Of a stretch of 64,000 nucleotides of DNA, positions 15,901 to 51,785 are shown piece after piece. The DNA lies in assembly GCA_000310025.1 (NCBI GenBank), contig FN648470.1:50505-114504 (forward strand), read 5' to 3'. The notes under the pieces are model-generated. The model saw only the letters and a list, made by a program, of their open reading frames with translations, did no database searches and was not told the DNA's origin. How positions within the stretch are numbered: position 1 is the first letter of the stretch; each line of letters begins with the position of its first letter. The stretch comes from Ectocarpus siliculosus (taxonomy: Eukaryota; Sar; Phaeophyceae; Ectocarpales; Ectocarpaceae). A program made the position numbers and the translations under genes.

Positions 15901-18900
15901 TGAGCGTCTTCTCTAGAGTTCATGCCTTGTCTTCTCGAGTCTCTCTTCCTTTAGTCTACATCTCTCTCTCTCTCTGTCGCATTACGCCGTTAGGGTCCCA
16001 ACAACATCGAACGTCAACGAGCGGCAATCGTTTTTCTTCTCGCGGAGTAGGAGGCTCCCCGTGTACCGGGCTGCTGCATGTGAGGCGATGGGCGCCGCCT
16101 CTTTCCGTCAACCAATGGACATGGCCCCTAATGTTCGCTGCATGCAGTGTCAGTACCATGGTATGTTTCAGCTTCTACCGGTTCAGAGTGGCGATGGTGT
16201 TTTTTCACCGGTGGGGCCCCCAGAACAACGCGAACCGCGACTGTTTCATTGTTTTGGGGTCCCCCACACCCACCCACTAGACTACTCATTAACTTCAGCA
16301 GTTTTCGTTGGGGGTGTATTTGTTTTCTTGCCATGTCCATGACGTGGTTCCCCGAGTGAGTATGGTTCGGTAGGGAACCGCAAACCATGACCCCTCCCCG
16401 AGTTCGAGCATCAGCTTCCGCCTCCTGTGACGAACAAGAAGACCGGAAATTGTCTCGCCATCCTAACAACAGTTTGCCAGTTGAAAAAGAGGGTCCGGTC
16501 CGCCGAAGGTTTTTTTTTGTGTTTCCCTGGCTAACCTCGGCTACGGCAGTGCAAATCTGGCGCCTCAAGTACGGTTCCGTAGGGAATTGTAAATCACGAC
16601 CCCTCCCCGACTTTGAGTAGCTTCCACCTCCTGCGGCGGATAAGACCGACGTCAAACCCTAAAATTTGTCTTTCTTGTGTCGCCATGTCGCCATCCGCGA
16701 ACAGCAGTTAGTTGTAGTGCCACAAAAAAGAGGGTCCGCTGTGCCACACACTACGAAAACAGTTTGTTATTATTTTTGATATTCTTCTACATACAGCTGG
16801 ATAGAACTACGATGTATCTACGATGTATCGGGTATAGCTGTGGTTGAGCTTGAGGGATAGGGTCAACGGCAAGACATTATATGCGCCTTCCTCGCGTAAC
16901 GATGCGCATCTCCCACGGCAAGCAGAATGAGAGGTACATCATCATGCATGATGTTCTTTCTTCTTGTGACTACAAATTCATGTCCGAGGTTTCAATCCAA
17001 CTACAGTCGGTGGTCCTCATTAACGGCACCCTTAATACTAGCGGAATGCCCTCTATAGCGGCACCAAAATCGTTTGGCACAACAAATAATGCATTTCTCA
17101 GTACAAATCCCTAATAGGAATAGCGGCACTGCCCTCTATATCTATAGCGGCGCGAAAACCTCTTGTCACTACCTACCGCCATTGGGGACCACCGACTGCT
17201 GTATTTAACTAACTGGAGTATGAGGGCGCTCCTTATTCTTATGCATCACATGCATGGCATGTACCTGTAGTAGGGGACAATATGTGTCACAACCCCTTTC
17301 ATCAATAATCACAGCTAATATTGATATTCCACGACGACGAGGATGATGGATGTCAAACGATACGTTTGTCTTCGGAAAGCTATCGGTTCCAACGTCGCCC
17401 GGCCACGCTTTCTGCTGTGGAGTAATCGAGGTTTGAAAATTAACAAGTGTTGAGGGGGTGTGATATCTTACATATATATGTCATCTATTCTGTGACAGCT
17501 TTGTCGTGCTCGGTGAGCGAGCGTGTCGCGTTGTGCGCCCTCGACATTTAATTATTATTAACCGCTAAAAAACTGGAGAGCTTCAGACAGGCACCGCGAC
17601 GATACTAGTCGAGTTGCTATCACAATATGATACACCAATGCCTATTGAAAACCATGTTGCCGATATGATATCGCAGCACCTACAGAAACAACGAAGATGT
17701 ATCGATGATCGACTCAGACACAGTTGCGGCTACAGGGTCATCGTAGACTCTCAAAGTTTGGTGGACGTCGGTGAGCAGCCTGGGGAGTTGTCCATGTGGG
17801 AAAAAATGGTACGGGCTTGACGTGGACGGGCGGAAGTTGCGCCGCGCAACTATGGTTCGACACCGTCGCGAAAAAGTTGCAGAACTTTTCCTCCAGACTG
17901 CAGCGTTTTGCTCAAAAGAAAGAGCTTCAAAATGTTTGACGCAACTTTTAGCTCCCATACCGAAAGTACATGAGGAAAGTTGCAAGAAAAGTTGCAAAAC
18001 TTTAACTTTTTCGCAGTAGTCTGCTTCCATAAAAAAGCGGTGTGATGCTGGCCCAAGCCTTCGACTTTTTGTTGGGCGTGGTACATGAGTGTCTTTCTTA
18101 CTAGTATCGACTGCGCTAATCGACTGGCCAATGGGAGGACGTCAGTCTCAGTGCAGTTGAAAACACAAAATGCTTCTGAAGGCCGCAATCTGGTACCCTG
18201 GGACTGAGCGTCTTGGGGAAGTCTACGCTACTCTCAGGATTGAAGACAGATACCGTAGCAAGAACAGAGGGAAACTGCACGTGTTTATCATGGCCGCTAC
18301 GACTTTGGACGCGTGTTCGCTTTGGATTGTTTTCACCTCCTTCCCTGCATATACTACCGACATTCTCGTCGCCAGTGTTCCCAATACTTTTTGGCAGGCC
18401 CTCTCCAGTCCTGCGACGTTTGTTGTGAGGAAGGTCTGACTCAAACCCTTTCCACTCTTCCGCGTCTGTGTCCCTCCTCCATCATCGCCTCCATCCTCCT
18501 TTGCCTTCCTTTCATCTCCGCCTCTCCCAAAAGAACTACGCTCAATACCGTTGTTGTCTCTTTCACCAGTACTACTGAAATCCCAACCTATTGGCCGTAG
18601 TGGAAATTGGCCGATCATAAGTCCATGACGTTTTGAAAACATGACGAGTTCACCCCGACAGGAACGAGCCAGCTCGAAGGTAAACCGTCTCCGAATTGTG
18701 TTGATATGGTATAATCTTTAGGCGAAGCAAGGCTGTTTCGTCGTCGAAATTCCCCCTGCTATTCTACGTGGGCCAATACCAAGAATACCCGATTTGTGCC
18801 GCTACCAAGACCAAAGGTTGAAAAAGCAGCATAAGGAGGGTAGATCTAGACGGATTTAACGTTCCCGCGTAGTGGTTTGCCTTAGTTGCTGCTGTCTTCG

Positions 18901-25500: not shown

Positions 25501-26524
25501 TCAGAACACAATCAACCATCCATCCTGAGTGGTTTCAGTGTGATTGGTGATGTTTCATTGCTATTTGCTCCACCGGTGGAGTAAGTTCTTATTTGCTCCA
25601 CCCGGCAGATCTCCACCCACAGAGCTCCAATCGACCTCAAACCAATTGCATCGTGCAGGTATGGACTACAGCTATCTGCAATTCTACTTACAAGCTAAAT
25701 CCGACAGGTGGCTGCAGAGATATTCTGAAAAAGGGGGTTCCGCAGCATGTCAGGAAGCAGTAATCGTCTCGAACTTCCGTCCACACCGCTCCAATTGACC
25801 TCAAATCTTTTGGATCGTGTTTGCACGGTCCATGCCGTTCTTCTAAGCTATCGGACACTCACATCCGATATCTTCCCGCAGAGATATGGTCAACCGAGGG
25901 GGTTCCGCAGCATCTAGGGGGGGGGTAGCTGGCAATAGTCCCTCTGTACCTCCCGTCACATAGCTGAACCACGCCTCACTCGGCCCGCATCGTGTTGGCG
26001 AGGCTCACAGCTATCATTCAACCCATCCTTCACCCCAATCGGACCAGTGGGTGCAGAGAAACGCCCCCACGTGGGGACTCAGTGGCTCGAGGGCCGGTGG
26101 AGCAGATAAGCTTAACTGCTCCACCAGGCCAACTCTTCGTTAAGGGTACTGTTTGTCCTACTACGGCTTGTATTGTGTCCGCCCGGCTCACAGCTCTCAT
26201 TCAAGCCATCGGACACCCCGATCGGACCAGTGGGTGCAGAGAAACGCCCACCCACGGGGGCTCAGGGACTCGAGGGCCGGTGGAGCAGATAAGCTTAACT
26301 GCTCCACCAGGCCAAACTCTATCTACAACGGGCGTTGTTTGTCTTACGAAGACTTTCATTGTGTTGGCCCGGCCCACAACTAACTATCATACAAGCCATC
26401 CGGCACCCCAATGGGACCAGTGGGTGCAGGGAAACGCCCACTCATGGGGACTCATCGCCCAAAGGCCTGTGGAGCAGATATGTGGCCTCTGACCCTTTCC
26501 TCGTCACGTTTTCTGTATCCTTTA

Positions 26525-27290
26525 GTCATATTCACTGTATTCCCTGATCACATACTACGCTGTCATGGGATACACTGTATTCCCAGATCACACACGCTGT
26601 ATTCGCTGAGGGGATACACTGTATTCCCTCGTCAGATACACTGTATTCCCTGAGCAGATTCACTGTATTCCCTCATCACATACAATGTTTCCCATATCAG
26701 ATTCACTTCATTCCCTGATCAGAATCGCCGTATTCCCTCGTCTGATACACTGTATTCCCTGATCAGATACGCTGTATTCCCAGAGCAGATTCATTGCGTT
26801 CACTCATCAGATACACTGTATTCCTTCATCAGATCCACTGCATTCCACGGCGTGCACATCTGATGGGGGGCACATTGAATCTGACTAGGGAATACAGTGA
26901 AAAGTTTAAGGAATACGGTAGGGTATTTGAAGAGGGAATACGGGGATCCTGACCAGGGAATACAGTGTATTTGATGAGGGAATAGAGTGCAACGAACGAG
27001 GCAATACGGTGTATTTGATGAGGGAACACAGTAAATCTACTCAGGGAATACAGTGAAAAGTACGACGAGCACTGTGTGTCGGATAAGGAAATACAGTGAT
27101 CCTGACAAGGGAATACAATGTATTTGATGATGGAATACAGTGAAACGAGCGAGGGAATACGGTGTATCTGATGAGGGAATACAGTGAATCTGCTCAGGGA
27201 ATACAGTGTTTAGCGTATCTGATCAACAAATACAGTGTATGTGATCAGATAATACACTGTATGTGTCCAGGAAATACAGTGTATTCTACA
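26525..27290. repeat. Inverted minisatellite core of foldback A
   Basis: From 26525 to about 26850 a unit of roughly 20-25 bp (TACACTGTATTCCCTGATCAGA-like) repeats about a dozen times. From about 26880 to 27290 the reverse complement (GGGAATACAGTGTATYTGAT) repeats in the same way. The two arrays face each other across about 30 bp. Confidence 0.85.
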
Positions 27291-27536
27291 CACAAAAGCA
27301 CTGCACCGTCCGAACACGGCGCCAAGAGGTGTCCGTGAGCAGAGAGGAGTGCCGACAATGGGGGTGGGGTGGCCGTTGTTGACGGAGAGTGCCATTAGTT
27401 GAGGGGGAGTGCCCCAAACCACCAGGAGGGGGGCGTTATTCGGGGGGTGCCCGTTAGTCGGGGTGGGTGGGGAGGAGTGCCCGTTAGCCCGGAGGGGAGC
27501 CCGTTTGAGAAAAATTCCCATATCCAGGGGGTGCCC
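27291..27536. other. Unique spacer between minisatellite and right arm of foldback A
   Basis: GC-rich stretch with repeated GGGGGTGCCCGTTAG-type words and no partner in the left arm. No gene is supported. Confidence 0.5.
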
Positions 27537-28374
27537 CTATCCTGTCACAGTCTTCGTACGACGATCAGCGCCCGGTGTAGATAGAGTTTGGCCTGGTGGA
27601 GCAGTTAAGCTCCACTGGCCCTTGAGCCGCTGAGCCCCCGTGGGTTGGCGTTTCTCTGCACCCACTGGTCCAATCGGGGTGTCCGATGGCTTGTATGATA
27701 GTTGTGGGCCGGGCCAACACAATGAAAGTCTTCGTAAGACTAACAGCACCTGGTAGATAGAGTTTGACCTGGTGGAGCAGTTAAGCTTATCTGCTCCACC
27801 GGCCCTTGAGTCACTGAACCCCCGTGGGTGGGCGTTTCTCTGCCCCCACTGGTTCGATCGGGGTGTCCGATGGCTTGTATGATAGCTGTGAGCCGGGCCG
27901 ACACAAGGCAACTCTTCGTAAGACAAACAGCGCCCGGTAGATAGAGTTTGGCCTGGTGGAGCAGTTAAGCTTATCTGCTCCACCGGCCCTTGAGTCTCTG
28001 AGCCCCCGCGTGGTGGCGTTTCTCTGCACCCACTGTGGTCCGATTGGGGTGGAGGATGGGTTGAATGATAGCTGTGAGCCGTGCCAACACGATGCGGGTC
28101 GAGAGAGGCGTGGTTCAGCTATGTGACGGGAGGTACAGCGGGACTATTGCCAGTTACCCCCCCCCCCCCGAGATGCTGCGGAACCCCCTCGGTTGACCAT
28201 ATCTCTGCGGGAAGATATCGGATGTGAGTGTCCGATAGCTTATCAGAACGGCATGGACCGTGCAGACACGATGCAAAAGATTTGAGGTCAATTGGAGCGG
28301 TGTGGACGAAGGTTCGAGACGATTACTGCTTCCTGACATGCTGCGGAACCCCCTTTTTCAGAATATCTCTGCAG

Positions 28375-28410
28375 CAAAGACTATGACTATAATAACCATA
28401 GGCCGATCAC
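28375..28410 (+). repeat. Left terminal inverted repeat (36 bp)
   Basis: Identical to the reverse complement of 37539-37574. A G run follows directly (28413-28422). Confidence 0.9.
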
Positions 28411-28580
28411 AGGGGGGGGGGGGATGGCCGGGGATGCCCGCAATGCGCGGCCGCTTTTTTTTTGTTTGTCAGCAGCACACATGAATTCCGCCGCCTGACC
28501 CAGGGCAAGGAGTACCCCGGCAACAGATCAACATCTCTTGGGACCTGCCTACCTGTCGAGGGTGCCGGTGTGCTCCATCG

Positions 28581-31500
28581 ATGAAGCTACTCGTACTCCT
28601 GCTGTGGGTAGCAGCTTGGACTGTGAAAGGTGAGGTAGCAAAAGTTATCGACTGTGTAGATGGTGTGACCCTGCGTTTTGTACTCCGCCAGCAACCGACT
28701 GGAGTCTACTGCAGTGCGCCTGGCTTGGCTTTGGGGGTGTGCCGTACGCAACGGGTCACAGAGGACCATGCTCTGTATGTGTGAGAGTCGAACGCTTTTT
28801 ACGGTTTGTCAAATGATGGAGTATTGACGGAATGGTGGCGACTTGTCTCACACCATCCCTGTATCCTTGTACCCTGGCGACCCCCCTGGACGACACGCCG
28901 CACATCTTTTAAAATCGTAAGAGACCGACACCCCCCCACATGACGCACATGACGACGTGGCACGGTTTGTTGTGCGCTATTTCGTGAGCAGAAACTAAAC
29001 CTTATAAACCTCGTGCACACGACATGTCCAAGCGTTTCTAGAGTTTCTGAAATGCAAAACGCTGAGTATTTTGCAGATGGCGGCAGATTGCGGTGTCTTC
29101 TCCCATCACGACCCCACAGCAACCGGGACAACGTCCCAGGCGAAAAAATCTTTTTGTCAGGGATGGGTGGTAACCTCTGTCCACACACGTGTGTTGTGTC
29201 TGCGATAGGCAAAAAATTGCTTTTCTGCCAACACCCCATCTTTTTCGGATTCTCTGTCCCCGCGTGTCCGCCAGGTATGGACATGGACATCGATCGTATC
29301 TCCACTTTTATTTACGTGGCGAAATCTTGAGAGAGAGTTGCGATTGCAGAGTGTGGCTGGCCTCTTGGGGGTACCGGCCGGCTTGGTTAGCGATCAGGTG
29401 AGCGTCGTTCGTTTTGCTCGTTGCCACGCACAAGCAAAGGGTGGAGCGGCGGCGACGGCGAGAAGCGAAAACGCCCCCGTTTTTCCGGGGCGCCAGAGCT
29501 TGGGGACTCGTTCTGCCGTCACACCGACACAATCGGCCAAGAAGGATGAAGACGAGAGACGTAAGCGCCGAACATCCGGACCGTTCAACGCTGGCACAGA
29601 CTCTCTGCAGGCCACACCCGACCCCACGAAGGTGAGCCAATCGAAGTATTTGTTTTGTCCAATACTGACGGCGTACGACGTTGACGACACTCAGTTTAGT
29701 CTCATAGTCGCAGCTTGAAGTCGATGGTCGCTCGTTATTTTTACGCAACACAGCAGTGGATCCCCGATAACGCGCGTAGTCTAGCCGAAGAGGATCGTCG
29801 GGCACTGTCTTAACACACAAACGTGATGTTTTTTCTTATGCAGCCAGATGGTCCGAAATACCCTCGGCGGTTTCAACCGGGCAGGGAGGGAAGCGACGGG
29901 GCGAAGCTGCCTGTGTACGTGTTCCTCGAGCAAGGCTTCCTGGAGGAGGGCGTGCCAGAACTTCTCACCAAGGACATGCACGCTGTCATTGTCCGGTGGT
30001 GGGCTAGTACCGTGGACAGCAATGAGGACCACGGATTTACTGGTAACCCTACGTCGACCGGCAAAGTCTTGTCAAAGAAGTAGACGGGAAGAAGGCGACC
30101 CGCTTCATATACCCACGCATGTTTAGCCAGGTAACGACCGCTTGCTGTTTTTTTTTTTGCGTAAACCGAAGTACATGATCACGGTCGTTACGGTGTTGAC
30201 CACTAGGACGCGGCCGTGCTGGTGAAAATCTTTTTTGTCAATTTGGGGCTTATTCGTTTTGTTCTAGGTGTGTGCCTGTGTACATATTTTTGTTGTTGAC
30301 TGTCGCTACAATACCGTCGTGTGTTGCTGGTGTCACGTCGGTCCGGCTTAACTATGTCATGTCCGTATGTTCGACTCCCTCGATGCGTGTGACTGCCCCT
30401 TGCATCCTTGCGTTTCACCCAGGACATTATAGGGTATCCACTATGGATTGACGCGGAATTTTGACCTTTGAGGATTGACGCCAACATAAAGTGACGGTTG
30501 AGGGTTTTGACGGGAAAAAATTCGCACCGCGTGTGCCCGTTGACACGTGAGAGGTGCAAAAAAAAAAAATGGTGGAGGTAGAGTTCAAGGTTGGTTCGGG
30601 CTGCCACCCAGGGTCGACATTCCGAAGCGAAGACTCAGCAGCAAAAAGGGGCATAGGCAGGGGAGTGATTGGGGGAGTCTCGCCCTCGAAGGGAGCACAT
30701 GGAGAGGAGTAAGGGAGGGTACACGGACTTTGCCAGTCAGTAGGTGCATTTCGCCCGCCCCCTCACGGGGTTCGGTGCTCTGCTGCCGCAGTGACATCGG
30801 TATATACACAGCAGTGCAGCGAGCAGCTGCCTTACTCATCAGCAACGAACGGCAGTTTGACGCCTGGGAAGTCGCAGTTTGACGCCTGGGAAAAGTCGCC
30901 GCGGCAAAGGAGGGAAGAGAGGGAATCCACGTGTTGTTGAAATGACGTGAAAGATTGACATTTCAGGAAGTTTTGACGTGAAGAGGTTGCGCCGCTTTTT
31001 TGGGGGCAAACTCTGACGGCGAAATTTTTGTGAGGAAGCGTCAAAATTAAATTTCACCCAAAGATAAAACGACGCGAAAAGATTGACGCTTCAAACATCG
31101 CCAGACTGCTGTGGCTCACACACGCTTGCTCTGCTGCGGTCTGCTGTGCGCGGTCAGCAGCGAACACATTGGCCATGCCTATACTGATTGCTCCTAGCGG
31201 TCCTGCACCCACGCGTCTCGGCAGTTCTCACGGCGGCCAAGTGGCCAGACGCGCGTGTTCGGCGCGCGCGTTCGGTAGATGCGCCGTCGCGATTGCGCAC
31301 GGGCTTTCAGCAGCAAAAAGGGGCATAGGCAGGGGAGTGATTGGGGGAGTCTCGCCCACGAAGGCAGCACATGGAGAGGAGTAAGGGAGGGTACACGGAC
31401 TTTGCCAGTCAGTAGGTGCATTTCGCCCGCCCCCTCACGGGGTTCGGTGCTCTGCTGCCGCAGTGACATCGGTATATACACAGCAGTGCAGCGAGCAGCT

Positions 31501-32114
31501 GCCTTACTCATCAGCAACGAACGGCAGTTTGACGCCTGGGAAGTCGCAGTTTGACGCCTGGGAAAAGTCGCCGCGGCAAAGGAGGGAAGGTCGGCGGGAT
31601 GAGGCGAAGGGGTACACCTAGTCTCCTGGGAGCCTGGGGGTGTGAGTCTTCGCTTCGGAATGTCGACCCTGGGTGGCAGCCCGAACCAACCTTGAACTCT
31701 ACCTCCACCATTTTTTTTTTTTCACCTCTCACGTGTCAACGGGCACACGCGGTGCGAATTTTTTCCCGTCAAAACCCTCAACCGTCACTTTATGTTGGCG
31801 TCAATCCTCAAAGGTCAAAATTCCGCGTCAATCCATAGTGGATACCCGAAATGAGGTTTGCGCACATACGGGTTGCAATGGAGACGCACAAGGCTCCCCA
31901 GGCGGCCCAAGCTGGAATGCACGGAGATACTTGTCGGCTGTCTCACGGTGAACGGCGCCGCAATGCGTCGAGAAAGGGCGGACAGCCCTCCGGTATCCAA
32001 CAGGGAGAAACTCTGCGCGTGGCATTGCCAGTATCCACGGAAGAGCTAGTAGAGGTAGTGAGAGCCGCCACGTGGCGCAATGCAGACCATGTGTTTGAGA
32101 CGCGCTCAGTGTGA
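28581..32114 (+). CDS. Unknown multi-exon gene inside the 9.2-kb transposon
   Basis: Three exons join cleanly in phase 0. Exon 29275-29397 encodes SPLLFTWRNLERELRLQS and VPAGLVSDQ. Exon 29497-29631 encodes SAKKDEDERRKRRTSG and ends before GTGAGC. Exon 29844-30130 encodes KLPVYVFLEQGFLEEGVPEL, then VIVRWWAS, and ends before GTAACG. The last is 287 bp, one short of a whole frame. The frame shifts after HGFTGN at a CCC run (30049-30051) and then continues PYVDRQSLVKEVDG...FIYPRMFSQ. One lost C in a pseudogene or assembly error would explain this. A possible first exon at 28581-28629 (MKLLVLLLWVAAW, signal-peptide-like, then AAG|GTGAGG) and a possible last exon at 31902-32114 (ending FETRSV and stop) are weaker. 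I recognise no family. It may be a second transposon gene or captured host sequence. Confidence 0.5.
30432..31847. mobile_element. 1.4-kb foldback element with about 200-bp inverted arms
   Basis: The left arm (from GGGTATCCACTATGG to about 30633) and the right arm (about 31643-31847) are near-perfect inverse copies. Next to the arms is a direct repeat of about 290 bp (30637-30935 and 31307-31588), containing TTTGACGCCTGGGAA in tandem. TTGACG-type words recur throughout. No target duplication and no gene seen. It lies in what would be an intron of the plus-strand gene. Confidence 0.8.
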
Positions 32115-32334
32115 AGGACTGCTGTCGTCGTGTGCTGTGTCTATAGATTGTGATTGTGGTGTATGTCTTTTGTTTGTCTTATGGGTTTGTTTTATTTTTT
32201 CTGCCTCGTTTTATTAGTCTTTCTCTTCTTTTTCCATAATTTTCCATCTCGTTTGTCCTTTTCGCCTCTGCCTCCGATGGCCTTCTCTCTATCTCTGTGA
32301 AGTAGCAAGATTGAACCAGGGGATGTACCTCTCT

Positions 32335-32540
32335 CTCGGACCGTGTGTGTAAACGGGAGCGGAGGGCCCCAGATTTAGGGTCGTTGATTGAAATTGGCTT
32401 GTGGACCGGTCCATTTTTTTTAGTGTACCTTTTGTAGGTAAGTTAGTATGGGACGGCGGTAATCACTCAGTTGAGTGTTTTCCAATGAAGAGATCGGAAC
32501 GGTTCTTTATTGTGAAGACAACAACAACAGTATGGTGTGT
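32335..32540 (+). repeat. SINE-B-like repeat with AAC tail
   Basis: Blocks GGACCGGTCCATTTTTTTTAG, GTACCTTTTGTAGGTAAGTTAG and GATCGGAACGGTTCTTTATTGTGAAGACAACAACAACA (tail) appear in the same order as in the minus-strand copies near 47435-47640 and 44705-44930. Confidence 0.45.
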
Positions 32541-33899
32541 GTGCGATGAGTTCCCGATTGGTTTACCTTGGTTTTGCAGTTTTTTTGTTCGTGCCGTTGA
32601 AGGGAGGGGCGGCGGTTGCGTGTACGGTTGAGGAGTGCACCAGCGTGGTCTTATCTTACCAATGTCTACAAGGAGAGTTTGTGTACCGGTAATGCGCCTG
32701 TGTCTCGTTGTAACGGCTACATGTTTTAGGGGAAAGCCCGGTTTGTATCCGCCGCGTGGACGTCTGTGGAGAGAATAAACAGGGTTCCGTACAGGACGAC
32801 AACGTAATGTTTCAGAGTTGCTCCGACGACTGAAGACATTTTGTGCAGAATCTTCAGGAAGGCTAGTGGTGTCAAGTTGGCACACCAACGACACAAGGCG
32901 CTACTTCTTGAAACCCATCGACTGATGCTTGTACGAATGTACGGATCCCGTCTTGCCTGTTGCACCAAGGCTCTCAAGGTGCCGATCTGATCTTATTTGT
33001 TTGAAGGATTGACTCCCTCTGAGGGGGGTATAGGTCCGATACACACAACGCGCGAAATGTTGGCGATCACGTGGTAACCACCAGGTCATGAGATCGATCC
33101 TTACTCGGATGACCTTTTTTCCCCGAAGGTGACTTTTTTTCTACTAAAAAACATTTTTTGGTTCTCCTCATTTGCGACACTCTCGCGCTATTCTCCCAGT
33201 CCTCACCAAAGACGAAGGACCAACACTTGCAAATGGCGGTCAATAGATTTCAACGAAAAAAACAAAAACAATCGGGAATATTTATTCTGGGGCCGGGAAA
33301 AAAAAGGACACACTCGACTCCTTAGTAACGATGTTAGTTTGAAACATGAGCATTCTCGTTTTGTTCCTGAGGCAGCGCGTATCCTACGCGAAGACACCAA
33401 GTTTATTGTCAAGAAAAGGACCACAAATACCACCGAAACTACAAACCGACTCGAAATCCGTTTTTCCGATCCGGCCCTGCATTCCCGCACTGAGGGAGTG
33501 TACTTTTTTTTTTTCTCAAATCACGTACTTGTACAGCCGAACTCCTATCTGATTTGTGCCCAATGTGCGCCTTCCAGTCGTCGGGGGTGAAAAACAAAAT
33601 AAACACACACACAAACATGTGGTCACGGCCCCTCAACTCCCTAACTTCCCCCCCACACACCCCACTCCCCCATCAAGTTACACATCGCCCCCCACTCCAG
33701 CTATGTGTACTCATCCTCGCCAGCTATCCGGAACGACAATTGCTGGTCGGAGTAAGGCCAGGCTCTCGTCGTCGTCTATCCCCGCTCGTGGTGAGAAGTA
33801 GCGCAACATTTTCTGAAGTTGCATCTTGTTGTACTTGGACGGCGGGTTGCCACCGCATTCTTTGATGTACTCTCTGAGGTTGGGGACCCTCAAACTCCG

Positions 33900-34691
33900 C
33901 TAAGCGCTCGAGCCGATAATCCGGTTAAGCTCCAGCTGGCGATCTCTCTGCGCGACAGTGTAGACTTTGATCGGCCTGGGTGCCTTTGGTTGTTTCGTGG
34001 TCGACCCCTTACCGCCAACCTCCCCCTTCAACTTGTCTCTTAGCGCCATCTCTGCTTTGCGGTTTTTTAAGCGCTTCTTCAGGTTCGTCAGTTCATTCGT
34101 GAACGCGAACATGCGGCAATTGTGCCACTTCTTCAAAACGAAATCGAACAGGTCGTCACATTGCTTTGTGCACCCCTTCCCCCCTTTGGGTCCGAGGTGA
34201 GGGTCTTCCACGAGACCCACACACCTTGACCATGCCGCCTTGACGGGCTCATACGTGGAAATCACCCTGTATATTTCCGACGGCAAATCACCCAGATACG
34301 TCGCCAACAGGGTGGGGTTGAGCAATGCCGACCTATACCCCATCTCTAGTGCACGCACGAAAAGATAGAAATCAGCTGAAGCGAAAATGAGACCCTTCCC
34401 TTCCCACGGGTTGTTCCTCTCCTCGACCACGAATTCCAAGCCACTGAAATGAGGGTCGGCCTCCCGGAACTCCTCAGCGGATGCAACTTTGTGGCTGTTG
34501 ACAAATGGCAAGAACGCCGAACCGAGAGAACGCTGTTTGTTCACGCGTGAAAGGGCGCTACTTAAAAGCCACCCAGCAATGTTGTACACAAGACGCCGTT
34601 GATGAACGTCCAGTTCAACGTCGCAGGCAGGATACGCCACTTTGACGAGATGGGCCTCGTCCAAACATTGCGTGAGGGTCTTGTCAACGAC
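33900..34691 (-). CDS. C-terminal exon of the transposase-like gene
   Basis: 263 codons to the stop after GSSA, with acceptor TCCGAGCAG just upstream and a phase-0 join from FGAIDE. LVYNIAGWLLSSALSRV followed, some 60 residues later, by VVEERNN and GLIFASADFYLFVRALE parallels the P/THAP9 pattern of an IAGYV helix and then a GGLxxPS segment. The C-terminus is basic (LKKRLKNRKAEMALR), as expected for a DNA-binding tail. Identification is by motif feel, not by a search. Confidence 0.6.
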   Translation of the reverse strand, partial: VVDKTLTQCLDEAHLVKVAYPACDVELDVHQRRLVYNIAGWLLSSALSRVNKQRSLGSAFLPFVNSHKVASAEEFREADPHFSGLEFVVEERNNPWEGKGLIFASADFYLFVRALEMGYRSALLNPTLLATYLGDLPSEIYRVISTYEPVKAAWSRCVGLVEDPHLGPKGGKGCTKQCDDLFDFVLKKWHNCRMFAFTNELTNLKKRLKNRKAEMALRDKLKGEVGGKGSTTKQPKAPRPIKVYTVAQRDRQLELNRIIGSSA

Positions 34692-37017
34692 CTGCTCGGA
34701 ATATGTATCACGGGGGGGGTGTAGCGGGTTGATGGATCATTGTCACGCCCAAATACAAAAACACCCTAAACACCAAACGAACTGGTACACCGGCAAGATT
34801 CTCGCGCCCATACGACTCTACCAGCCTTCCACGTGCCAACCATTCGAGGCAGACTCACCTCGTCGATGGCCCCGAACACGCAAGTGAGTGTGTGAGCGAC
34901 ACGCCGACTCTCCACTCCTAGCTCTTGAGCCTTGCGGACGATGCTCGGCTCGGTTCTGAACTCCAGTTGCTTCGGAAAGCGCTCGTCCTCACGCTTCTTC
35001 TCGTACGCTAGTGCGCGCTTCGACGAAGGCGGTTGTTGGAATTTTTACCAGAACCCCCCACCACCCAAGAATCGCGTCCTTTACTCCCTGAACCAAGAGT
35101 AAACCTACGACGATATGCTTGAACTGCTTGTCTTGCCCTAGCCAATGTTCCCGGAGATGTTGCCCAACCAAGCTCACCACCCTCTGGCCTGTCGGGAGCT
35201 TGCTGATGATGAAGTCGGCCAGGGCTGCATAGGTCTATCGTGCAAGGAGCATACACCGAGCATGGCGGCGACAGCTTGAGAACAACGCATATTTATGATT
35301 GCTTTCATGGCGCCCCTCTCCTTTCATGGTTGATGGTACCAAGCAAGGTCATATTAACCGGATTCTGAAGAGACTCCAGAAAAAACACGATGTTAGCGCG
35401 AAGTCGAGACGGTGGCGGCCTTCCCTTCTCACCTGCTGTTCGGCTTGAGGAGTATCCGTCTCTTCTGCTTTTGTCTCTTCATCCTCCTCCTCCTCATCTT
35501 CCCTGGTGAATGCATCCAGGCATTCATACAGGCGGTCGAAGTCCTCGGAACCTTCATCGTCTTGATCAATACCCTTGATGCCTGTGTCACATACGAAGAA
35601 TTTACGCGCGCGGGGGTGGGGGGGGTGGGAGGCACACATGCCTAAGGTGTCAGTGAGCAACCGTAATCTATTCCCTATAAGCCGGAGATGGTCTTGGTGT
35701 GCCTTACCCGCGTGACGACCGCCCAGCCTCCAGGGTACCGCTACCATTGAAGACTCCTCATCACAAGGCAGCGATTGGGTCTGCTTGACAAAAGTCACGA
35801 GCTGTGCGGTGAAGAGTTCTTACCGCGCATAGACTCCGAGCGAGTCATGTATCAATAGCAAAATTACGGTGACGTCGTAAACTACAAGTTCGAACACTCA
35901 TGTCGGAGTCTTTGAGGACATATCTCGAACATGCCCAGGCATCAGTCCTACGGAAACCGCAGTGCACGCGTACGAAGCTAGTCTTACCCAAGTCTTCGTC
36001 GTCACTCCCATGTTGCTCGGGATTGCTGTGGCCTTTCCCCTCTTCTTCCCCTCCGGCGATCCTGAGCGAAGGCATGGGTGCGGCATCAACAGAGGGCAAA
36101 TTAGCACCAAGTGCTACCACCATGACACTACTTTACGTCGACGGCGATCACATCGTGCGCTATCAAAGTTGTCCTCATGCTAACCCTACCCTGCAAATAT
36201 GCATACCTCTCCCAGAGAAAAACCACGAAGGCGATGCACGGGCGCAGCACAGACGTCCTCATCTTCGTCAGAACCATCCCACCCCCCCCCTGCCGCCGCC
36301 CCGCGCAGGTCCTCCATGATTTCGAAGCGCGATCACCCACCTGTTATGGTTTTTTAATCATACGTTGGTGAATGGACAGGCATGTATACAGCCTCGACTT
36401 CCCTGTGAGCCCGAATATCTACCATGTATCAACATAGTGGCGGGCACACTCATAAATAAATGCACATCCGTACGAGCAATGATATTGCGGTCGCGTCCTG
36501 TCGTAGTCTCGCCGTCAAGAGGACTTCCAGACACGATTGCACACTCCGGAATCCACCGTACAAAACATGATACAACCAGGTGACAGACCTCGCGCTACAC
36601 TGCCGTGCTTTGGTGCCCCCCTGTCCACCTACCCTCCTAACCTCCACCAGACTCTGCGTTGGTCGGGTGGTTGTGATGGGTATAGGGTAGGTTGCATGAG
36701 AGACCACACACCCGTGCACGCTGATTTCAAAGCAACGACTACTCCACGGCGAAGAAGATGCATCAATGTAACGAAATGTTTTCGGAAAGCTCTCTAGGAG
36801 ACAGCTTCAACGCGGCCGTTTTGGCACCGTCACGCTTGATATCGTGGAGAAATGGAGCTGTGATACCCGGTTCAGGGGGGTGGTATCTTATGTCACCTAC
36901 CTGTTGACATACGTTGCCTCCAGCGTCGGGTTTGCAACGTCCACATCAGGCACCCAATTAATGCCACACGGCAGAGAGTATAAGAGCAAGTCTCTATTTG
37001 GGTCATCTCCCACGCCC
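33900..37017 (-). CDS. Transposase-like gene of the 9.2-kb transposon (multi-exon)
   Basis: Coding blocks on the minus strand: 36901-37017 (GINWVPDVDVANPTLEA), 36423-36594 (WIPECAIVSGSPL...VHLFMSVPATM), 36207-36317 (MEDLRGAAAGGGWDGSDEDE, possible start ATG at 36317, donor GAG|GTATGC), 35988 to about 36120 (acidic, HGSDDEDLG, donor GTAAG), 35433 to about 35620 (FDRLYECLDAFTRE then acidic, EQQ|GTGAGA), about 35030-35240 (FIISKLPTGQRVVSLVG), 34859-35026 (YEKKREDERFPKQLEF...FGAIDE|GTGAGT) and 33900-34691. The frame changes between the 35030-35240 and 34859-35026 blocks without a plausible intron. The C-terminal block resembles the end of P-element/THAP9-type transposases. The N-terminal part is not resolved and no THAP finger was seen. 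Confidence 0.55.
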
Positions 37018-37538
37018 CTGAGGGACGTCGGCGATACACAAACCCACAGGACGTGACATGTGTCAACTGCTGTGTCTTTGCGGGACCACTGAATTTGAAC
37101 TGAAACCAACAAGTTTTCTCACAAGTACGAAGCGAGTTGATGATCAATTGCCGTGAAACTTTGCAATATCAGAGGAAACGTAGTTGACTACGGAGGGACA
37201 GCAACCGTTGCGTACGGGAAAGCTTAGTAGCCGAGAGCGGCAGAGAAGGGCCCTAGCACCTCGCTGCTGCTGGTTTGAACTGAGCTGTAACATTTTTCAG
37301 TTTTTCTCCCCGCACCTGTTGCGGATTGAGCCCAATCCTCCTGCACGACGTTACCAGGTGTATGCAGCCACGTTCTCGCACCCTAGCGAGGAGAAGCACT
37401 CTCCTGGTGTGCTCCACTTCTTGCGTTTATGGGGCGGCGTGGGGCCAAGCCGGGGGGTTTCGTATGTTTTTTCGAAGCTTTTTTGGGGGCAAAAATCCGG
37501 CGCGCATTGCGGACAGCTTTCATATAGGAAATTTGGGA

Positions 37539-37574
37539 GTGATCGGCCTATGGTTATTATAGTCATAGTCTTTG
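37539..37574 (-). repeat. Right terminal inverted repeat (36 bp)
   Basis: It begins GTGATCGGCCTATGG and ends ATAGTCTTTG, directly followed by the CTCTGCAG duplication. Confidence 0.9.
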
Positions 37575-38164
37575 CTCTGCAGCCAACGGTCGGATTTAGC
37601 TTGTAAGTAGAATTGCAGATAGCTGTAGTCCATACCTACACGATGTAATTGGTTTGAGGTCGATTGGGGCTCTGTGGGTGGAGATCTGCCGGGTGGAGCA
37701 AATAAGAACTTACTCCACCGGTGGAGCAAATAGCATTGCCGATTATTAATCGCTCTGCGCATCGGAGATAGATAGATGTGAGGACGGGGTGTTGTTGTTG
37801 TTGTCTTCACAAAATAAAACTCGCATCAATTACTAATAATCCCAAAATCGTGGGTGGAAGAAACACTATAGGTAGTAGCGCCCATAGTTAAGAAACGTCA
37901 ATACAGGTCGAGCCTCAATCCCATATTTTGGGTCGAAGGACCGACCCAAGTCGTCCATTTGAAAATTCTTTTTCCTGTTGACTGTCGCATCCTCTCGATT
38001 CTCTTATTCTTTAGAATTTCTGCGTATTATTTTCTTATATCTGTATTTTGGTCTCTAATGACAATCCACTTCATCAAGCCCTCAAGAGAGGCGGTGGAGT
38101 GGAGAGTGCCATCACCCCCGTACCACAGCGGAGAGCATGTGGTTTTTCGCGATGTGTGGCAGTT

Positions 38165-38640: not shown

Positions 38641-38931
38641 TACATAGTCTGCGTATATATTTAGTTGTGTTTTGTTGTCACTTCATACCACAAAAAAAAA
38701 GTCTCCACAGTTCGGAAAATGCAGCTTGCTGCTGCTGCACGCAGATTGCTGCTATATTTGCTTGGAGATGAGGCAGCCTGCTCGTTCGTGTAGCGGTAGC
38801 GGTGCGCATCTATCGCTACGGCAAACACATTTGAGATAATAGGAAATGTGGCAGCCTGCTCGTTCGTGTAGCGGTAGCAGTGCGCATCTATCGCTGCGGC
38901 AAACAAGTTTGAAATATTGAATTATTATTAA

Positions 38932-40665
38932 CGGCAATGCTATATGCGCCGGTACCGGCGCAAATTCTTAACCGCGCCGGTACCCTTAACTCCGCTTGTA
39001 GACCTTTGATCGACTTCAAACAACTTGCGCTGTGTAGCTATGGCCCACAGCTATTACGCGAGCCATTCGGCGTGCGAATCCACCCCGTGGTTGCAGAGTT
39101 ATGCTCGAAAAAGGGGGCTCAGCGGGATCGCAGCAGGAACGAATCCGGCCGTAACTCCACTCTCAGACCTCTAATGAACACCAAACAAGTTGTGCTGTGT
39201 TGCTACGGTCCGCAGCTATCATCTGAGCTATTGGCTGCACCGATCAGCTCAGTAGTCGCAGAGATAACGCCGAAAAGGGGGCTCAGCAGCATCGCAGCGG
39301 GGGGTGTCAGGCACGATTCCAGCCGTATCTCAGCCCCCAAAGCTCTAATGGACACCGAACAAGCTGCGCTGTGTTGCGATGGCCCACAGCTATCATTCGA
39401 GCCGTCGGTTGCACCAATCCGCCCAGTGGTTGCAGAGGTATGCCTACCCACGGGGGGTACCGTGACGCCAGAAGTGGTGGCGCAGTTAAGGCTTATCTGC
39501 GCCACCACCCGTACCTTGCACGACAGGCCATAGATCGACACCAAACAAGCTGCGCTGTGTTGCTATGGCCCACAGCTATCATTCGAGCCGTCGGTCGCAC
39601 CAATCGGCCCAGTGGTTGCAGAGGTATGCCTACCCACGGGGGTACCGTCTGGCGCATTTAAGGCTTATCTGCGCCACCACCCTCAACTTGCACGAGAGAC
39701 GATGGATCGACACCAAACAAGCTGCGCTGTGTTGCCATGGCCCACAGCTATCGTTCAAGCTGTCGGGTGCACCAATCAGCCCAGTGGTTGCAGAGGTATG
39801 CCTACCCACGGGGGTACCGTGACGCCAGAGGTGGTGGCGCAGTTGAGGCTTATCTGCGCCACCACCCTCAACTTGCACGAGGGACGATGGATCGACACCA
39901 AACAAGCTGCGCTGTGTTGCTATGACCCACAGCTATCGTTCGAGCCGTCGGTTGCACCAATCCGCCCAGTGGTTGCAGAGGTATGCCTACCCACGGGGGT
40001 ACCGTGACGCCAGAGGTGGTGGCGCAGATAAGCCTTATCTGCCCCACNNNNNNNNNNNNNNNNNNNNNNNNNNNNNNNNNNNNNNNNNNNNNNNNNNNNN
40101 NNNNNNNNNNNNNNNNNNNNNNNNNNNNNNNNNNNNNNNNNNNNNNNGGGTTGGCATACCTCTGCAACCACTGGGCGGATTGGTGCAACCGACGGCTCGA
40201 ATGATAGCTGTGGGCCATCGCAACACAGCGCAGCTTGTTCGGTGTCCATTAGAGCTTTGGGGGCTGAGATACGGCTGGAATCGTGCCTGACACCCCCCGC
40301 TGCGATGCTGCTGAGCCCCCTTTTCGGCGTTATCTCTGCGACTACTGAGCTGATCGGTGCAGCCAATAGCTCAGATGATAGCTGCGGACCGTAGAAACAC
40401 AGCACAACTTGTTTGGTGTTCATTAGAGGTCTGAGAGTGGAGTTACGGCCGGATTCGTTCCTGCTGCGATCCCGCTGAGCCCCCTTTTTCGAGCATAACT
40501 CTGCAACCACGGGGTGGATTCGCACGCCGAATGGCTCGCGTAATAGCTGTGGGCCATAGCTACACAGCGCAAGTTGTTTGAAGTCGATCAAAGGTCTACA
40601 AGCGGAGTTAAGGGTACCGGCGCGGTTAAGAATTTGCGCCGGTACCGGCGCATATAGCATTGCCG
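38932..40665. mobile_element. Foldback element B, palindrome with tandem units and assembly gap
   Basis: The left end CGGCAATGCTATATGCGCCG and the right end (its inverse, ending 40665) match. About 515 bp at each side are inverse copies. The left arm continues with four tandem units of about 180 bp (near 39345, 39530, 39705 and 39885), each with CAAGCTGCGCTGTGTTGC and a nearly palindromic GGTGGCGCAGTTAAGGCTTA. A run of 100 N (40048-40147) sits at the fold centre, so the matching right-arm units are probably collapsed. The layout parallels foldback A. No gene; frames through the Ns mean nothing. Confidence 0.8.
40048..40147. other. Assembly gap (100 N)
   Basis: Exactly 100 N, the usual placeholder for unknown length, in the centre of a palindrome. 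Confidence 0.99.
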
Positions 40666-40874
40666 AAAAAATAAATGTTGTACCCAAAGCTGCACATTTA
40701 TTTTTCGCTTTTTTTGTTCTACAGCTATTATAGGCTACATTAAGTACATATTATGATGGAATGATGGGTAATTATCCATGCTCTCTACTACTGCTGTACG
40801 TTTGTTGACGCGTGCGCATAATATTTGTTGTTGACTTCTCGGCGGAACACATCGTCCATTGCACAGACAGCAGC

Positions 40875-47484: not shown

Positions 47485-50400
47485 CTTCACATTAAAAACA
47501 GTTCCGATCTCTCTCTACCCAGTACCTTCATATTATGTCCGTACTGATCCAACACTTGACGCGGTCGATTCCCGTGGTCACAGGCTAACTTACCATAAAA
47601 AGGTACGCTAAAACAAACTGGCCCCGAGAGGTCCGCAAGTCAATAGAAATCAAAAACAGATGTTCTTTGGAAGGGGGTGTTTACTCGCCATGTCTATGAC
47701 TGTGCCCTGCAAGTTTCACAATTCTGAAGCTCTTCTGAAGCTAATTGAAACAGTAGTGTCATCGTTCGATATCCGTTCGGTGGGGAATCAATCGCAAATC
47801 ATGACCCGTCCCCGAGTTTGAGCAGCTTCCGCCTCCTGTGGCCGGCAAGAGTCGGCCTTCACTGCTGTACCTTGTCTGTTTCGCCATGGGAATGGCCGGT
47901 TGATGAACAGCGAAAGAGGGTCCTGCGTGCTGCGCGCCACCACTTGTTTTGTTTTGCGTTTGTTACTGTGATTTTCTTCCTGAGTGACCGTTGTACACAA
48001 CATGCGGCTGCTGCTGTACACATACTTGCGGTTGCTGCAGTACATGCTCGGAATGTGCTGCAAAGGTCGTAAGGTTATCGTCTCTGTTGTTTTGGGCTGC
48101 ACGCGTTGCTCGCGTAGGCGATGCGCGTCTCCTACTTTTTTCCAGTGTCGTTGTCTGCAGCACAGCTAGTTGAAGAGACAGACAACAACAGACGGTCCGC
48201 CTTAGTTTTTTTGGTTTTGCTGCATGCATGGGTGGTATGCATCGGCAAGCGTGTTGCTTCCTCACCTTGAGTCTGCTGCGTAGTCGTAATTTGAGCGATA
48301 AGTAAGGTAGATGGCAGCACAATCTTATTTACTACGTAGTGAGGTATGATAACCAACGGCTCGTTCGTGCAGCGGTGCGCATCTACGGCGCACGGCAAGC
48401 GTATTGAGACAGTAGTTCGTCCGTGGTGCTATGTAGTCATGCCCATTTTAGTTCTCACTTCCTACAATTGTGATAGCAACTCGACGAGTATCGTTGCGGT
48501 GCCTGTCTGAAGCTCTCCAGTTTTTTAGCGGATAATAATGTCGAGGGCGCACAACGCGACACGCTCGCTCACCGAGCACGACAAAGCTGTCACAGAGTAG
48601 ATGACATATGTAAGATATCACACCCCCTCAACACTTGTTAATTTTCAAACCTCGATTACTCCACAGCAGAAAGCATGGCCGGGAGACGTTGGAAACGATA
48701 GCTTTCCGAAGACAAACGTATCGTTTGACATCCATCCTCCTCGTCGTCGTGGACTCTCATTATTAGCTGTGATTATTGATGAAAGGGGTTGTGATATATA
48801 ATGTCCGCTACTACAGGTACATGCAATGCATGTGATGCATGTGATGCATAAGAATAAGGAGCGCCCTCCTACTCCAGTTAGTAAAATACAGTCGGTAGTC
48901 CTCAATAGCGGTAGGTAGTGAGAAGAGGTTTTGGTGCCGCTATAGAGGGCAGTGATGTTATTCCTATTAGGGATTTGTACTGAGAAAGGCATTTGTGCCA
49001 AACGATTTCGGTGCCGCTTTAGAGGGCATTCCGCCATTAAGGGTACCGCTAATGAGGACCGCCGACTGTAGTTGAATTGAAACCTCTCATTACCCATCCT
49101 TGAAGAAGTCGTTTCTGAAGCAAAAGAATCATGGAATTTTTGAGCCGACCTCACGCGCACCCAAAAAACCCGTCAGTCTTCGACCGGCACTTCTCACTAC
49201 ACCCATCCATGCTCATGCACTTTCTTGTGGCGAGCGACTCCATGGTTTCTTTCAAGAATCCCGCTAATCATCCTTGATCTCGTTGATCTGTTTCTTTCGT
49301 TTACAAAATGTACTGTAGTACGCACGATCACACCCGAATGAAAAGGAGACCACCAGAACGCGCTCTCCGCACGCTGGGAAAGGATCCGGGACTAAACGAA
49401 TGCGGACCCCAGAAGATGCACTTTTCACATTTGGTTAGTGGCGAAGCGGACCCTCTTTTTTGTGGCTCTCCAACTGCTGTTCGCGGATGGCGACATGGCG
49501 ACACAGACAGACAAATTTTAGGGTTTGACGTCGGTCTTATCCGCCGCAGGAGGTGGAAGCTACCCAAAGTCGGGGAGGGGTCGTGATTTGCAATCCCCAA
49601 GGGAACCGACTTCAGGCGCCATGAGATTTGCACTGCCGTGGCCGAGGTTATTATTCTTATTATTATTTATTTGTTTTTGTCTTCACTTCAAATCAGCGCT
49701 CACAGCACTAGTAGTGCCGTTTACTCCAACCCGTGGTCACACAGAAGAGCCCCTCTCTACCCTCCCCTCCTGCGGTACTTCGCCTTCAATTTTTAATGCG
49801 AGAAGAGTTCAGCACTCTCTTCCCTCTGTGTACACACGAACTAGCGCTATCCACTAGGCCAGGAGCGGAAGCGAGAGAACAACTCGCTTTGCAAGAAAAG
49901 CTCGCTTACGCCGGGATTCGAACCCCAGACCTGACCTCTAGAAGGTTTCGAGGTTACCAACTAGACCACCGGGGCGACCGGCATGTTATTAGCCGGCAGG
50001 GAAACACAAAAAAAAATCTTCGGCGGACCGGACCCTCTTTTTTCAACTGGCAAACTGTTGTTAGGATGGCGAGACAATTTTCGGTCTTCCTGTCCGTCAC
50101 AGGAGGCGGAAGCTGATGCCCAAACTCAGGGAGGGGTCATGGTTTGCGGTTCCCCTTCGAACCATACTCACTCGGGGCACCACGTCATGGACATGGCAAG
50201 AAAAACATACCCCCAACGAAAACTGCTGGAGTAGTGGGTGGTTGTGGGGGACCCCAAAACAATGAAACAGTCGCGGTTCGCGTTGTTCTGGGGGCCCCAC
50301 CGGTGAAAAAACACCGCCACTCTGAACCGGTAGAAGCTGTAACATACCATGGCACTGACACTGCATGCAGCGAACATTAGGGGCCATGCCCATTGGTTGA

Positions 50401-51785
50401 CGGAAAGAGGCGGCGCCCATGGCCTCACATGCAGCAGCCCGATACACGGGGAGCCTCCTACTCCGCAAGAAGAAAAACGATTGCCGTTCGTTGACGTTCG
50501 ATGTTGTTGGGACCCTACCGGCGCAATGCGACAGAGGGAGAGAGAGAGGTAGACTAAAGGAAGAGAGACTCGAGAAGGCAAGGCATGAACACTCGAGAAG
50601 ACACTCACTCTCATCCCTCTGGTGCACCGCAGGCTTGAACACGTGTAACGAACGGCGACATCCGATGTGCGCTCAGCAACAACAAACACAGCAAAAGAAA
50701 ATACTTGTCGTTTCCAGACTGTGGAGACTTTCATTTTTTTGTGGTATGAAGTGGCAACAAAGAACAACACGACTATCTGTGTAGGCTAGACTAGAGGCAC
50801 GACGGACGAACTATTATCTCAATGCGCTTGCCGTCGCGATAGATGCGCACCGCTACCGCTACACGAACGAGCAGACTGTTGCCAAACCTGACAACGATAA
50901 CCTTACGACCAGCACATTTCCGAGCATTTCACAGTAGCAGCCGCATTTTCCGAACTGTGGAGACAATTGGTGGGGACTTTCTCTATTTTTGTGGTATGAA
51001 GTGACAACAAAGAAGAACACCACTATCTGTGTAACTAGAAGCACGACGGATGAACTACTATCTATGCGCTTGCCGTCGCGGTGGATGTGCACTGCTACCG
51101 CTACACGAACGAGCAGACTGTTGTCAAACCTGACAACGATAACCTTACGACCATTGCAGCACATTCCGAGCATAACAGCAGCAACCGCGGCAGCAGCCGC
51201 CGCATGTGCACAACGGCCACTCAAGAACAAACGAAAAAAAAATGTGGCGCGCAGCACGCAGGACCCTCTTTCGCTGTTCAACCGGCCGTTTCCATGGCGA
51301 AACAGGCAAGGAACAGTCAAGGCCCACTCTTGCCGGCCACAGGAGGTGGAAGCTGCTCAAACTCGGGGACGGCTCACGATTTGCGATTCCACACCGAATC
51401 ATACTCGAGGCGCCACGAGATTTGCACTGTAGCTCGAGATCAGCATTTTAGACCGAGTCGGGCAAGAGGTGGGGGATGCGAATGAAAGTTCCACCCACCC
51501 ACGGATATCGAACGATGAGACTGAAGCTAAAGCTTCAGAACAAGATAGTCCACAGCTCGCACACGGCGACTGACTATATTTGTTTGTTGTGCTTGTTTGT
51601 TGTGCTTGTTTGCTGATATTTGTTTGTTGTGCTTGTTTGCTGTTGCTGAGCCGACATCGCATATCGCCGTTCGATACACAACGTGACATCATGTCTGACA
51701 ACCTGCGGTGGGCCAGAGGCACGAGAGTGAGTGGCTTCTCGAGAGAGTCAATTCCTTGTCTTCTCTCCGCTCTCTTCTTTTTGTC

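What the first reader, a model, noticed from the sequence alone, without database searches (positions are those of the whole stretch)
28375..37574. Recent 9.2-kb transposon with identical 36-bp ends and an exact 8-bp duplication, with the empty site preserved in the opposite palindrome arm
CTCTGCAG flanks both identical ends. Because it landed in one arm of a palindrome, the other arm (about 25.7 kb) records the uninterrupted target. Size, two facing multi-exon genes and nested foldback are unusual for P-like or hAT elements, so this may be an undescribed lineage.
Basis: partly seen in the sequence, partly recalled or inferred. Interest (0 to 1): 0.75.

Follow-up and report, generated by a model that had tools for sequence, protein, structure and literature searches.

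The report
P-like jumping gene with excision scars
The 9.2-kb stretch is a real, damaged cut-and-paste transposon whose fuller relatives carry what looks like a distant cousin of the fruit-fly P element transposase plus a second, facing gene, and short scars elsewhere in the same genome appear to record where such elements jumped out.

Summary
In detail: identical 36-bp inverted ends, an exact 8-bp duplication, and a gap-free empty site in the opposite palindrome arm. The element belongs to a family; other copies lack the nested 1.4-kb foldback. The 33.9-34.7 kb protein matches nothing known. The likely transposase is the facing + strand gene, internally deleted here. In relatives, notably a 9.3-kb element with 42-bp ends and an exact 8-bp duplication, that gene looks like a divergent P-superfamily transposase: a core profile hits one solved protein, P element transposase, weakly (E 0.16), but aligns on its D339 and E531. 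The two genes converge in 6 of 6 loci where both were detected. Of 35 short loci bearing these ends, 25 hold 26-73 bp of end remnant between exact 8-bp repeats, keeping at most 26 of 36 or 28 of 42 nt per end: most simply, excision footprints of a P-like staggered cut, apparently longer than fly P's 17 nt. "Recent" is not shown (copies about 96-97% identical). A new variant of a known kind.

The parts
28367..28374 (.). left copy of the 8-bp target site duplication CTCTGCAG
28375..28410 (+). left terminal inverted repeat, 36 bp
   Evidence: genome copies
28485..28781 (+). possible 5' part of gene A, 36% aa to C461; exon status uncertain, since minus-strand frames there match about as well (28472-28705, 50% over 66)
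29859..30074 (+). gene A exon like C461 (46% aa over 72), candidate first-Asp region (...TKDMHAVIVRWW...GFTG); identity of the Asp uncertain
30095..30133 (+). gene A remnant RFIYPRMFSQV (just before the Glu motif); the exons with the second Asp and the D(2)H/insertion domain, present in C461 and C3b, are missing upstream of it
30429..31846 (.). nested foldback-type insert with about 205-bp inverted ends, absent from five other copies printed; it splits the DNA that reads QDILEMRFAHIR in four of them
31842..32111 (+). gene A exon following the Glu motif (FAHIR...), 63% aa to C461, 30% to C3b
33714..33899 (-). gene B C-terminal continuation, in another frame than the main exon in this copy (58% aa to C461)
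33903..34736 (-). gene B main exon (278 aa open frame), conserved in the family, function unknown
34769..35044 (-). gene B upstream exon
35011..35292 (-). gene B upstream exon, boundaries uncertain
35352..35819 (-). gene B upstream open frame, weakly conserved
37539..37574 (-). right terminal inverted repeat, 36 bp
37575..37582 (.). right copy of the 8-bp target site duplication CTCTGCAG
25712..25719 (.). single CTGCAGAG, the empty target site in the opposite palindrome arm

Best explanation
The feature is a defective copy of a cut-and-paste DNA transposon of a divergent P-superfamily lineage. Fuller relatives carry two convergent, intron-containing genes between their ends: gene A, a P-type RNase H transposase with D(2)H and QDxxE motifs and an insertion domain, and gene B, a conserved protein of unknown role. 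Shown: ends, duplication, empty site, other copies, convergent order of the two genes, and end remnants between exact 8-bp repeats. Inferred: gene A protein cuts the 3' transposon ends at the outer edge and the other strand about 23-28 nt inside the inverted repeat, inserts into an 8-bp staggered target, and host end joining of the 3' overhangs left at the donor leaves the footprints. The window copy lacks the second Asp and the insertion domain and has a nested insert in the Glu motif; in its present state it could only be moved in trans (the nested insert may have come after the last move). Gene B is inferred, weakly, to be an accessory or DNA-binding partner.
For: Profile of gene A core (A3, five joined rows) against 177,635 PDB sequences: one hit at E up to 10, P element transposase 6p5a (E 0.16, 13.8 bits), in two collinear stretches (6.5 and 4.9 bits); counting along the printed alignment puts our SDPxH Asp on D339 and our QDILE Glu on E531, residues that PMC8230255 names as D(2)H and catalytic Glu (passages). 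Pfam TNP-like_RNaseH_C in 2 of 5 members (best E 0.011) and RNaseH_N in 1 of 5 (E 0.039) of A3. C461:42677-52011, 9335 bp, 42-bp identical ends, exact GGACGCAG duplication, holds both genes. Convergent in 6 of 6 loci with both genes detected. Footprints: 25 of 35 short TIR loci have exact 8/8 flanking repeats and 2 more 7/8, against 204 of 19,979 random window positions with an exact 8-mer recurring 10-110 bp on; all 25 remnants differ in sequence; 0 of 38 window-type ends keep more than 26 of 36 nt and 0 of 12 C461-type ends more than 28 of 42. P element cleaves 17 bp inside its 31-bp TIR and makes 8-bp duplications (PMC7776569, passages). Gene B dN/dS 0.24-0.57 between subfamilies, 0.98-1.36 among three close window-type copies.
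Against: No protein hit reaches significance: no Pfam family for the joined C3b protein; RNaseH_N does not reappear when the longer rows of A2 are scanned; the only bits printed are 12.8 and 13.5 against a cut-off of 24; PF21787 was not found in the genome by six-frame search (but no control genome rang either); 6p5a is E 0.16, and E 0.34 among 45 sequences, the other 44 nuclear receptors, with the longer profile. The exon joins, including the one just before QDILE, are mine. D1 is not securely placed (two candidates in C3b; block X4 not found in C461). The N-terminal region resembles zf-C4 weakly, not THAP. No gene A I read is undisrupted and complete, so activity is inferred from scars. Gene B has no known fold: AlphaFold pLDDT 40. 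Ends plus duplication around both genes are shown for C461 and, with gene A truncated, the window; ends of C3b, C26 and C53 were not found, and those of C83 not resolved.
Confidence: 0.8

Rival explanations
1. The element is a hAT (or KDZ) transposon: 8-bp duplication and ends that begin CAAAG fit hAT end rules (recalled).
For: 8-bp duplication and CA...G start.
Against: Footprints keep long stretches of both ends, whereas hAT transposases cut at the element's edge (recalled); no hAT or KDZ Pfam model appears for the members of A1, A2 or A3, which are incomplete proteins; the only solved protein found by the gene A core profile is P transposase.
Confidence: 0.07
2. The 26-73 bp palindromic remnants are tiny MITEs of the family, inserted as such, not excision scars.
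For: They have inverted ends and 8-bp duplications like full copies. P-derived MITEs exist (205-2450 bp in Anopheles; PMC1562414, passages).
Against: All 25 with exact repeats differ in sequence; retained end lengths vary (3-26 and 17-28 nt), none has a complete 36- or 42-nt end, and some keep only 3-9 nt on one side, which leaves little for a transposase to bind.
Confidence: 0.1
3. Gene B is the missing C-terminal domain of the P transposase, split off onto the opposite strand, so that the enzyme works as two proteins.
For: Gene A conservation ends within about 100 aa after the Glu motif; where gene A was detected, gene B faces it (6 of 6); its model is all helical (too poor to trust), as the P C-terminal domain is (PMC7776569, passages).
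Against: No sequence similarity to 6p5a or any Pfam model; the model's pLDDT is 40.
Confidence: 0.2
4. Gene B is a captured host gene or an anti-silencing or regulatory factor, not needed for cutting (as the second gene of MuDR elements, recalled).
For: Conserved across subfamilies with dN/dS below 0.6; facing arrangement like MuDR (recalled).
Against: Among the 22 genome matches I recognised no single-copy host homologue; but the most distant places, such as C104, were not classed.
Confidence: 0.4

Closest known systems
Drosophila P element and its transposase (PDB 6p5a/6pe2)
   Same: 8-bp duplications, about 30-bp inverted ends, staggered cut deep inside the ends (here inferred), D(2)H and QDxxE motifs aligned on D339 and E531, internally deleted copies.
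   Different: 2.9 kb with one transposase gene against 7.8-9.3 kb with two facing genes; 17-nt stagger against an inferred 23-28; N-terminal region weakly zf-C4-like rather than THAP; sequence similarity below significance.
Zebrafish THAP9 / Pdre elements
   Same: 8-bp duplications and a P-type DDE transposase (PMC10983969 and PMC8230255, passages).
   Different: 13-bp ends with distant subterminal repeats; no second facing gene was mentioned in the passages seen.
Galileo (P superfamily, Drosophila; recalled, and search listings only)
   Same: P superfamily; its long inverted repeats recall the roughly 430-bp inverted repeat around the C83 relative.
   Different: Foldback-like ends, unlike the 36-42-bp ends here; one transposase gene (recalled).

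Membership tests
P superfamily | 8-bp target site duplication | tested here: met
   window, C461, 25 of 35 footprint loci
P superfamily | D(2)H motif after the second Asp | tested here: met
   NMSDP[MV]H in C3b and C461 aligned on D339 of 6p5a (stretch of 6.5 bits); absent from the window copy by deletion
P superfamily | catalytic Glu in QDxxE | tested here: met
   QDILE aligned on E531 (stretch of 4.9 bits); DNA reading QDILEMRFAHIR in 4 of 5 other window-type copies printed
P superfamily | first and second catalytic Asp in an RNase H fold | tested here: inconclusive
   CDGA.EQ conserved in 4 loci; first Asp ambiguous; RNaseH_N model E 0.039 in 1 of 5, not seen
P superfamily | curated Pfam model above cut-off | tested here: not met
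   12.8 and 13.5 bits printed for the first member against cut-off 24; none; bits of the other members not printed
P superfamily | cleavage deep inside the inverted repeat | tested here: met
   footprints keep up to 26 of 36 and 28 of 42 nt; indirect
P superfamily | GTP cofactor | not testable with these tools
   needs biochemistry
P elements in the narrow sense (THAP9 type) | N-terminal THAP zinc finger | tested here: inconclusive
   no THAP match; zf-C4 in 2 of 5 members, best E 0.01; the first exon may be missing from the models
hAT | hAT dimerisation or DDE domain | tested here: not met
   on incomplete joined proteins
KDZ | KDZ transposase domain | tested here: not met
   on incomplete joined proteins

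The most novel reading that the evidence does not exclude
A two-component P-superfamily transposon: the catalytic protein (gene A) and an obligatory partner (gene B, perhaps standing in for the C-terminal domain) are encoded by two convergent genes, and the enzyme makes a longer staggered cut (about 23-28 nt) than the 17 nt of fly P, readable from natural footprints.
Probability: 0.25. Interest if true: 0.75.

Novelty: new variant of a known kind. Interest (0 to 1): 0.6.

Why it matters
[quoted passage not shown] A distant relative with a second gene and a natural archive of some 25 probable excision scars would let the cut position and its repair be read from one genome without an assay, and asks whether the long stagger is a property of the whole superfamily. 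It also suggests that P-type transposases can lie below the reach of curated models, so such elements may be filed as unknown DNA transposons.

Tried and rejected
Gene B against Pfam and PDB, alone and as a profile, gave only weak matches that I take as chance (PAN_3, lipocalin, ribosomal L21, GRASP; an upstream exon Utp25_C). A structure of gene B from 10 sequences failed (pLDDT 40) and was not searched. By eye I took gene B for the P C-terminal domain and its end for a SAP domain; neither was supported. Two viral-contig scans found no relative of either gene. PF02992 and PF21787 six-frame searches found nothing, but no control genome rang either. The host could not be named; the rRNA locus is partly withheld. 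The C50 rows (wrong strand or frame) are dropped from my dN/dS statement. In one search the automatic pairs for L061, L072 and L074 are spurious or doubtful and are not counted as footprints.

Full report
Observation. The ends, the duplication and the empty site are as described. The first 36 bases from 28375 equal the reverse complement of the last 36 before 37574; CTCTGCAG lies on both sides. The element stands in one arm of an inverted repeat; with one 8-mer removed, 232 bases of joined flank align to the other arm without a gap. Inside, 30429-31846 is a nested insert with about 205-bp inverted ends: the five other copies printed across the point lack it, and it is related to an abundant repeat (81 matches from the 40 candidates scored of 109; 39 other places of about 0.93 kb at 98-100%). 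No target duplication of the nested insert is evident, and three bases of the empty site are missing beside it.

Copies. Window-type copies were found on C50, C71, C3, C10, C457, C120, C18, C394 and C59, 92-97.5% identical over the longer blocks (one 173-bp block of the C10 copy is 77%). C457, C394 and C59 share their flank (98.8-99.4% over 500 bp) and so are one insertion in duplicated sequence or separate haplotypes. C50 has both ends but no matching duplication; C71 has a damaged left end. More distant relatives are on C461, C58, C16, C53, C83, C26 and a second place on C3, here called C3b.

Two genes. Comparison of C3b with C461, C53, C83 and C26 reveals conserved exons on both strands. 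Gene B is the window's minus-strand gene with the 278-aa exon. Gene A is the facing gene. They converge in the window, C461, C3b, C26, C83 and C53, 6 of 6 loci where both were detected; in C58 and C16 no gene A was detected above chance. C461:42677-52011 is bounded by 42-bp identical ends and exact 8-bp repeats and contains both. Its matched regions hold in-frame stops.

What gene A is. Single exons and the joined C3b protein gave no Pfam family that I credit. A profile of five joined relatives (A3; two rows reach only as far as the second Asp, one holds only the end, and the exon joins are mine) found one PDB sequence at E up to 10, P element transposase 6p5a, E 0.16, in two collinear stretches of 6.5 and 4.9 bits. 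Counting along the printed alignment, SDPxH falls on D339 and QDILE on E531. PMC8230255 (passages) names D339 as the D(2)H motif and D230, D303, E531 as the triad. The scores are low; the weight lies in both stretches falling in order on the defining residues. QDILE is contiguous with FAHIR in the DNA of C461 and QDICE with SHIR in C53. Pfam TNP-like RNase H models appear in 2 and 1 of 5 members of A3 (best E 0.011 and 0.039); with the longer A2 rows only the C-terminal model is listed. The A2 profile with the N-terminal part hits 44 nuclear receptor sequences (best E 0.00018) and 6p5a (E 0.34), and zf-C4 in 2 of 5 members (E 0.01); I do not rely on that part.

What the window copy has lost. 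Against C461, the exons from the second Asp through the D(2)H and insertion domain are missing between about 30074 and 30095. Window-type copies align across this place without them, and searches with the second-Asp exon and the D(2)H exon found 4 and 2 genomic places, none window-type. In 4 of 5 other window-type copies printed the DNA reads QDILEMRFAHIR; in C50 its start is deleted, and in the window the nested insert splits it. Hence the window copy is non-autonomous, and the window-type copies that I could compare look like an internal-deletion derivative moved in trans, as is known for fly P (PMC7776569, passages). No intact gene A was seen; the assembly may be incomplete.

Footprints. 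A scan for the first 23 bases of the end gave 45 matches, 0 for the reversed control. Besides the ends of full copies, 27 short loci of this end type were fetched, plus one and seven of the C461 end type. Of these 35, 25 show end remnant between exact 8-bp direct repeats (19 window-type: L054-L060, L062, L064-L066, L070, L071, L073, L075-L078, L090; 6 C461-type: L083-L086, L088, L089), 2 show 7 of 8 (L063, L067), and 8 do not or are unclear (L061, L068, L069, L072, L074, L079, L080, L087). Exact recurrence of an 8-mer 10-110 bp on occurs at 204 of 19,979 random window positions. Lengths run from 26 to 73 bp; retained ends run from 3 to 26 of 36 nt, and from 17 to 28 of 42 nt in the second family. 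The scans asked for a good match at one end, so the lower part of the range is biased; the upper limit is not. Some retained lengths overlap by microhomology or rest on scoring with mismatches, so single-base values are uncertain; an upper limit close to the CCATA step in both families is the robust statement. P transposase cuts 17 bp inside a 31-bp repeat (PMC7776569, passages). The same logic gives an inferred 23-28 nt here. L060 carries a second partial copy of the end.

Selection. Gene B main exon: dN/dS 0.24-0.57 between subfamilies, 0.33-0.61 among C53, C83 and C26, 0.98-1.36 among window, C3 and C18 copies, 0.43-0.59 for window-type pairs with C457. Gene A exons: 0.11-0.48 between subfamilies where defined, but 1.28 (X5) and 0.58 (X4) for the close pair C26/C83 (dS is saturated in several pairs; Nei-Gojobori-style counting written by me). 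So both genes seem to have been constrained as lineages split, while some recent copies drift.

Prior work. Library searches for P-superfamily elements in algae, with two genes or with footprints listed none that by title and start of abstract describes this. The Ectocarpus TE paper (PMC12477816, passages) shows no P superfamily in the part of its table seen but 51 unknown DNA transposon families; I do not know that the host is a brown alga. Repbase and most subscription journals are not covered, so absence from print is not shown.

Verdict. A real, defective member of what is most likely a divergent P-superfamily lineage with an unusual two-gene layout and a rich set of probable excision scars; a new variant of a known kind.

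Noticed in passing
30429-31846: Nested foldback-type insert is related to a homogeneous (98-100%) abundant repeat of about 0.93 kb in this genome, which looks recently amplified; positions 210-485 of the window copy are in no listed match other than the window itself.
   Followed up: partly
25556-28374 and 37575-37738: The host palindrome has 183-184-bp tandem units in its arms and 22-bp units at its centre; a similar unit makes up an array in another palindrome at 38921-40676.
   Followed up: no
15004-17475 and 48606-51502: A set of long inverted matches, many 94-98% identical, 31-36 kb apart, encloses the whole region; possibly two copies of one repeat in opposite orientation.
   Followed up: no
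L042:869-1297 and 9464-9901: The C83 relative is flanked by an inverted repeat of about 430 bp running off the fetched stretch, so some relatives may have long Galileo-like ends.
   Followed up: partly
L051 (C3b gene A N-terminal exons; also C26, C83): N-terminal region resembles nuclear receptor (zf-C4) zinc fingers, E 0.00018 to 1a6y by profile, zf-C4 E 0.01; may be convergent.
   Followed up: partly
L060, L061: Two short loci contain an additional partial copy of the end, as if repair copied the overhang twice or a second event hit the same site.
   Followed up: no
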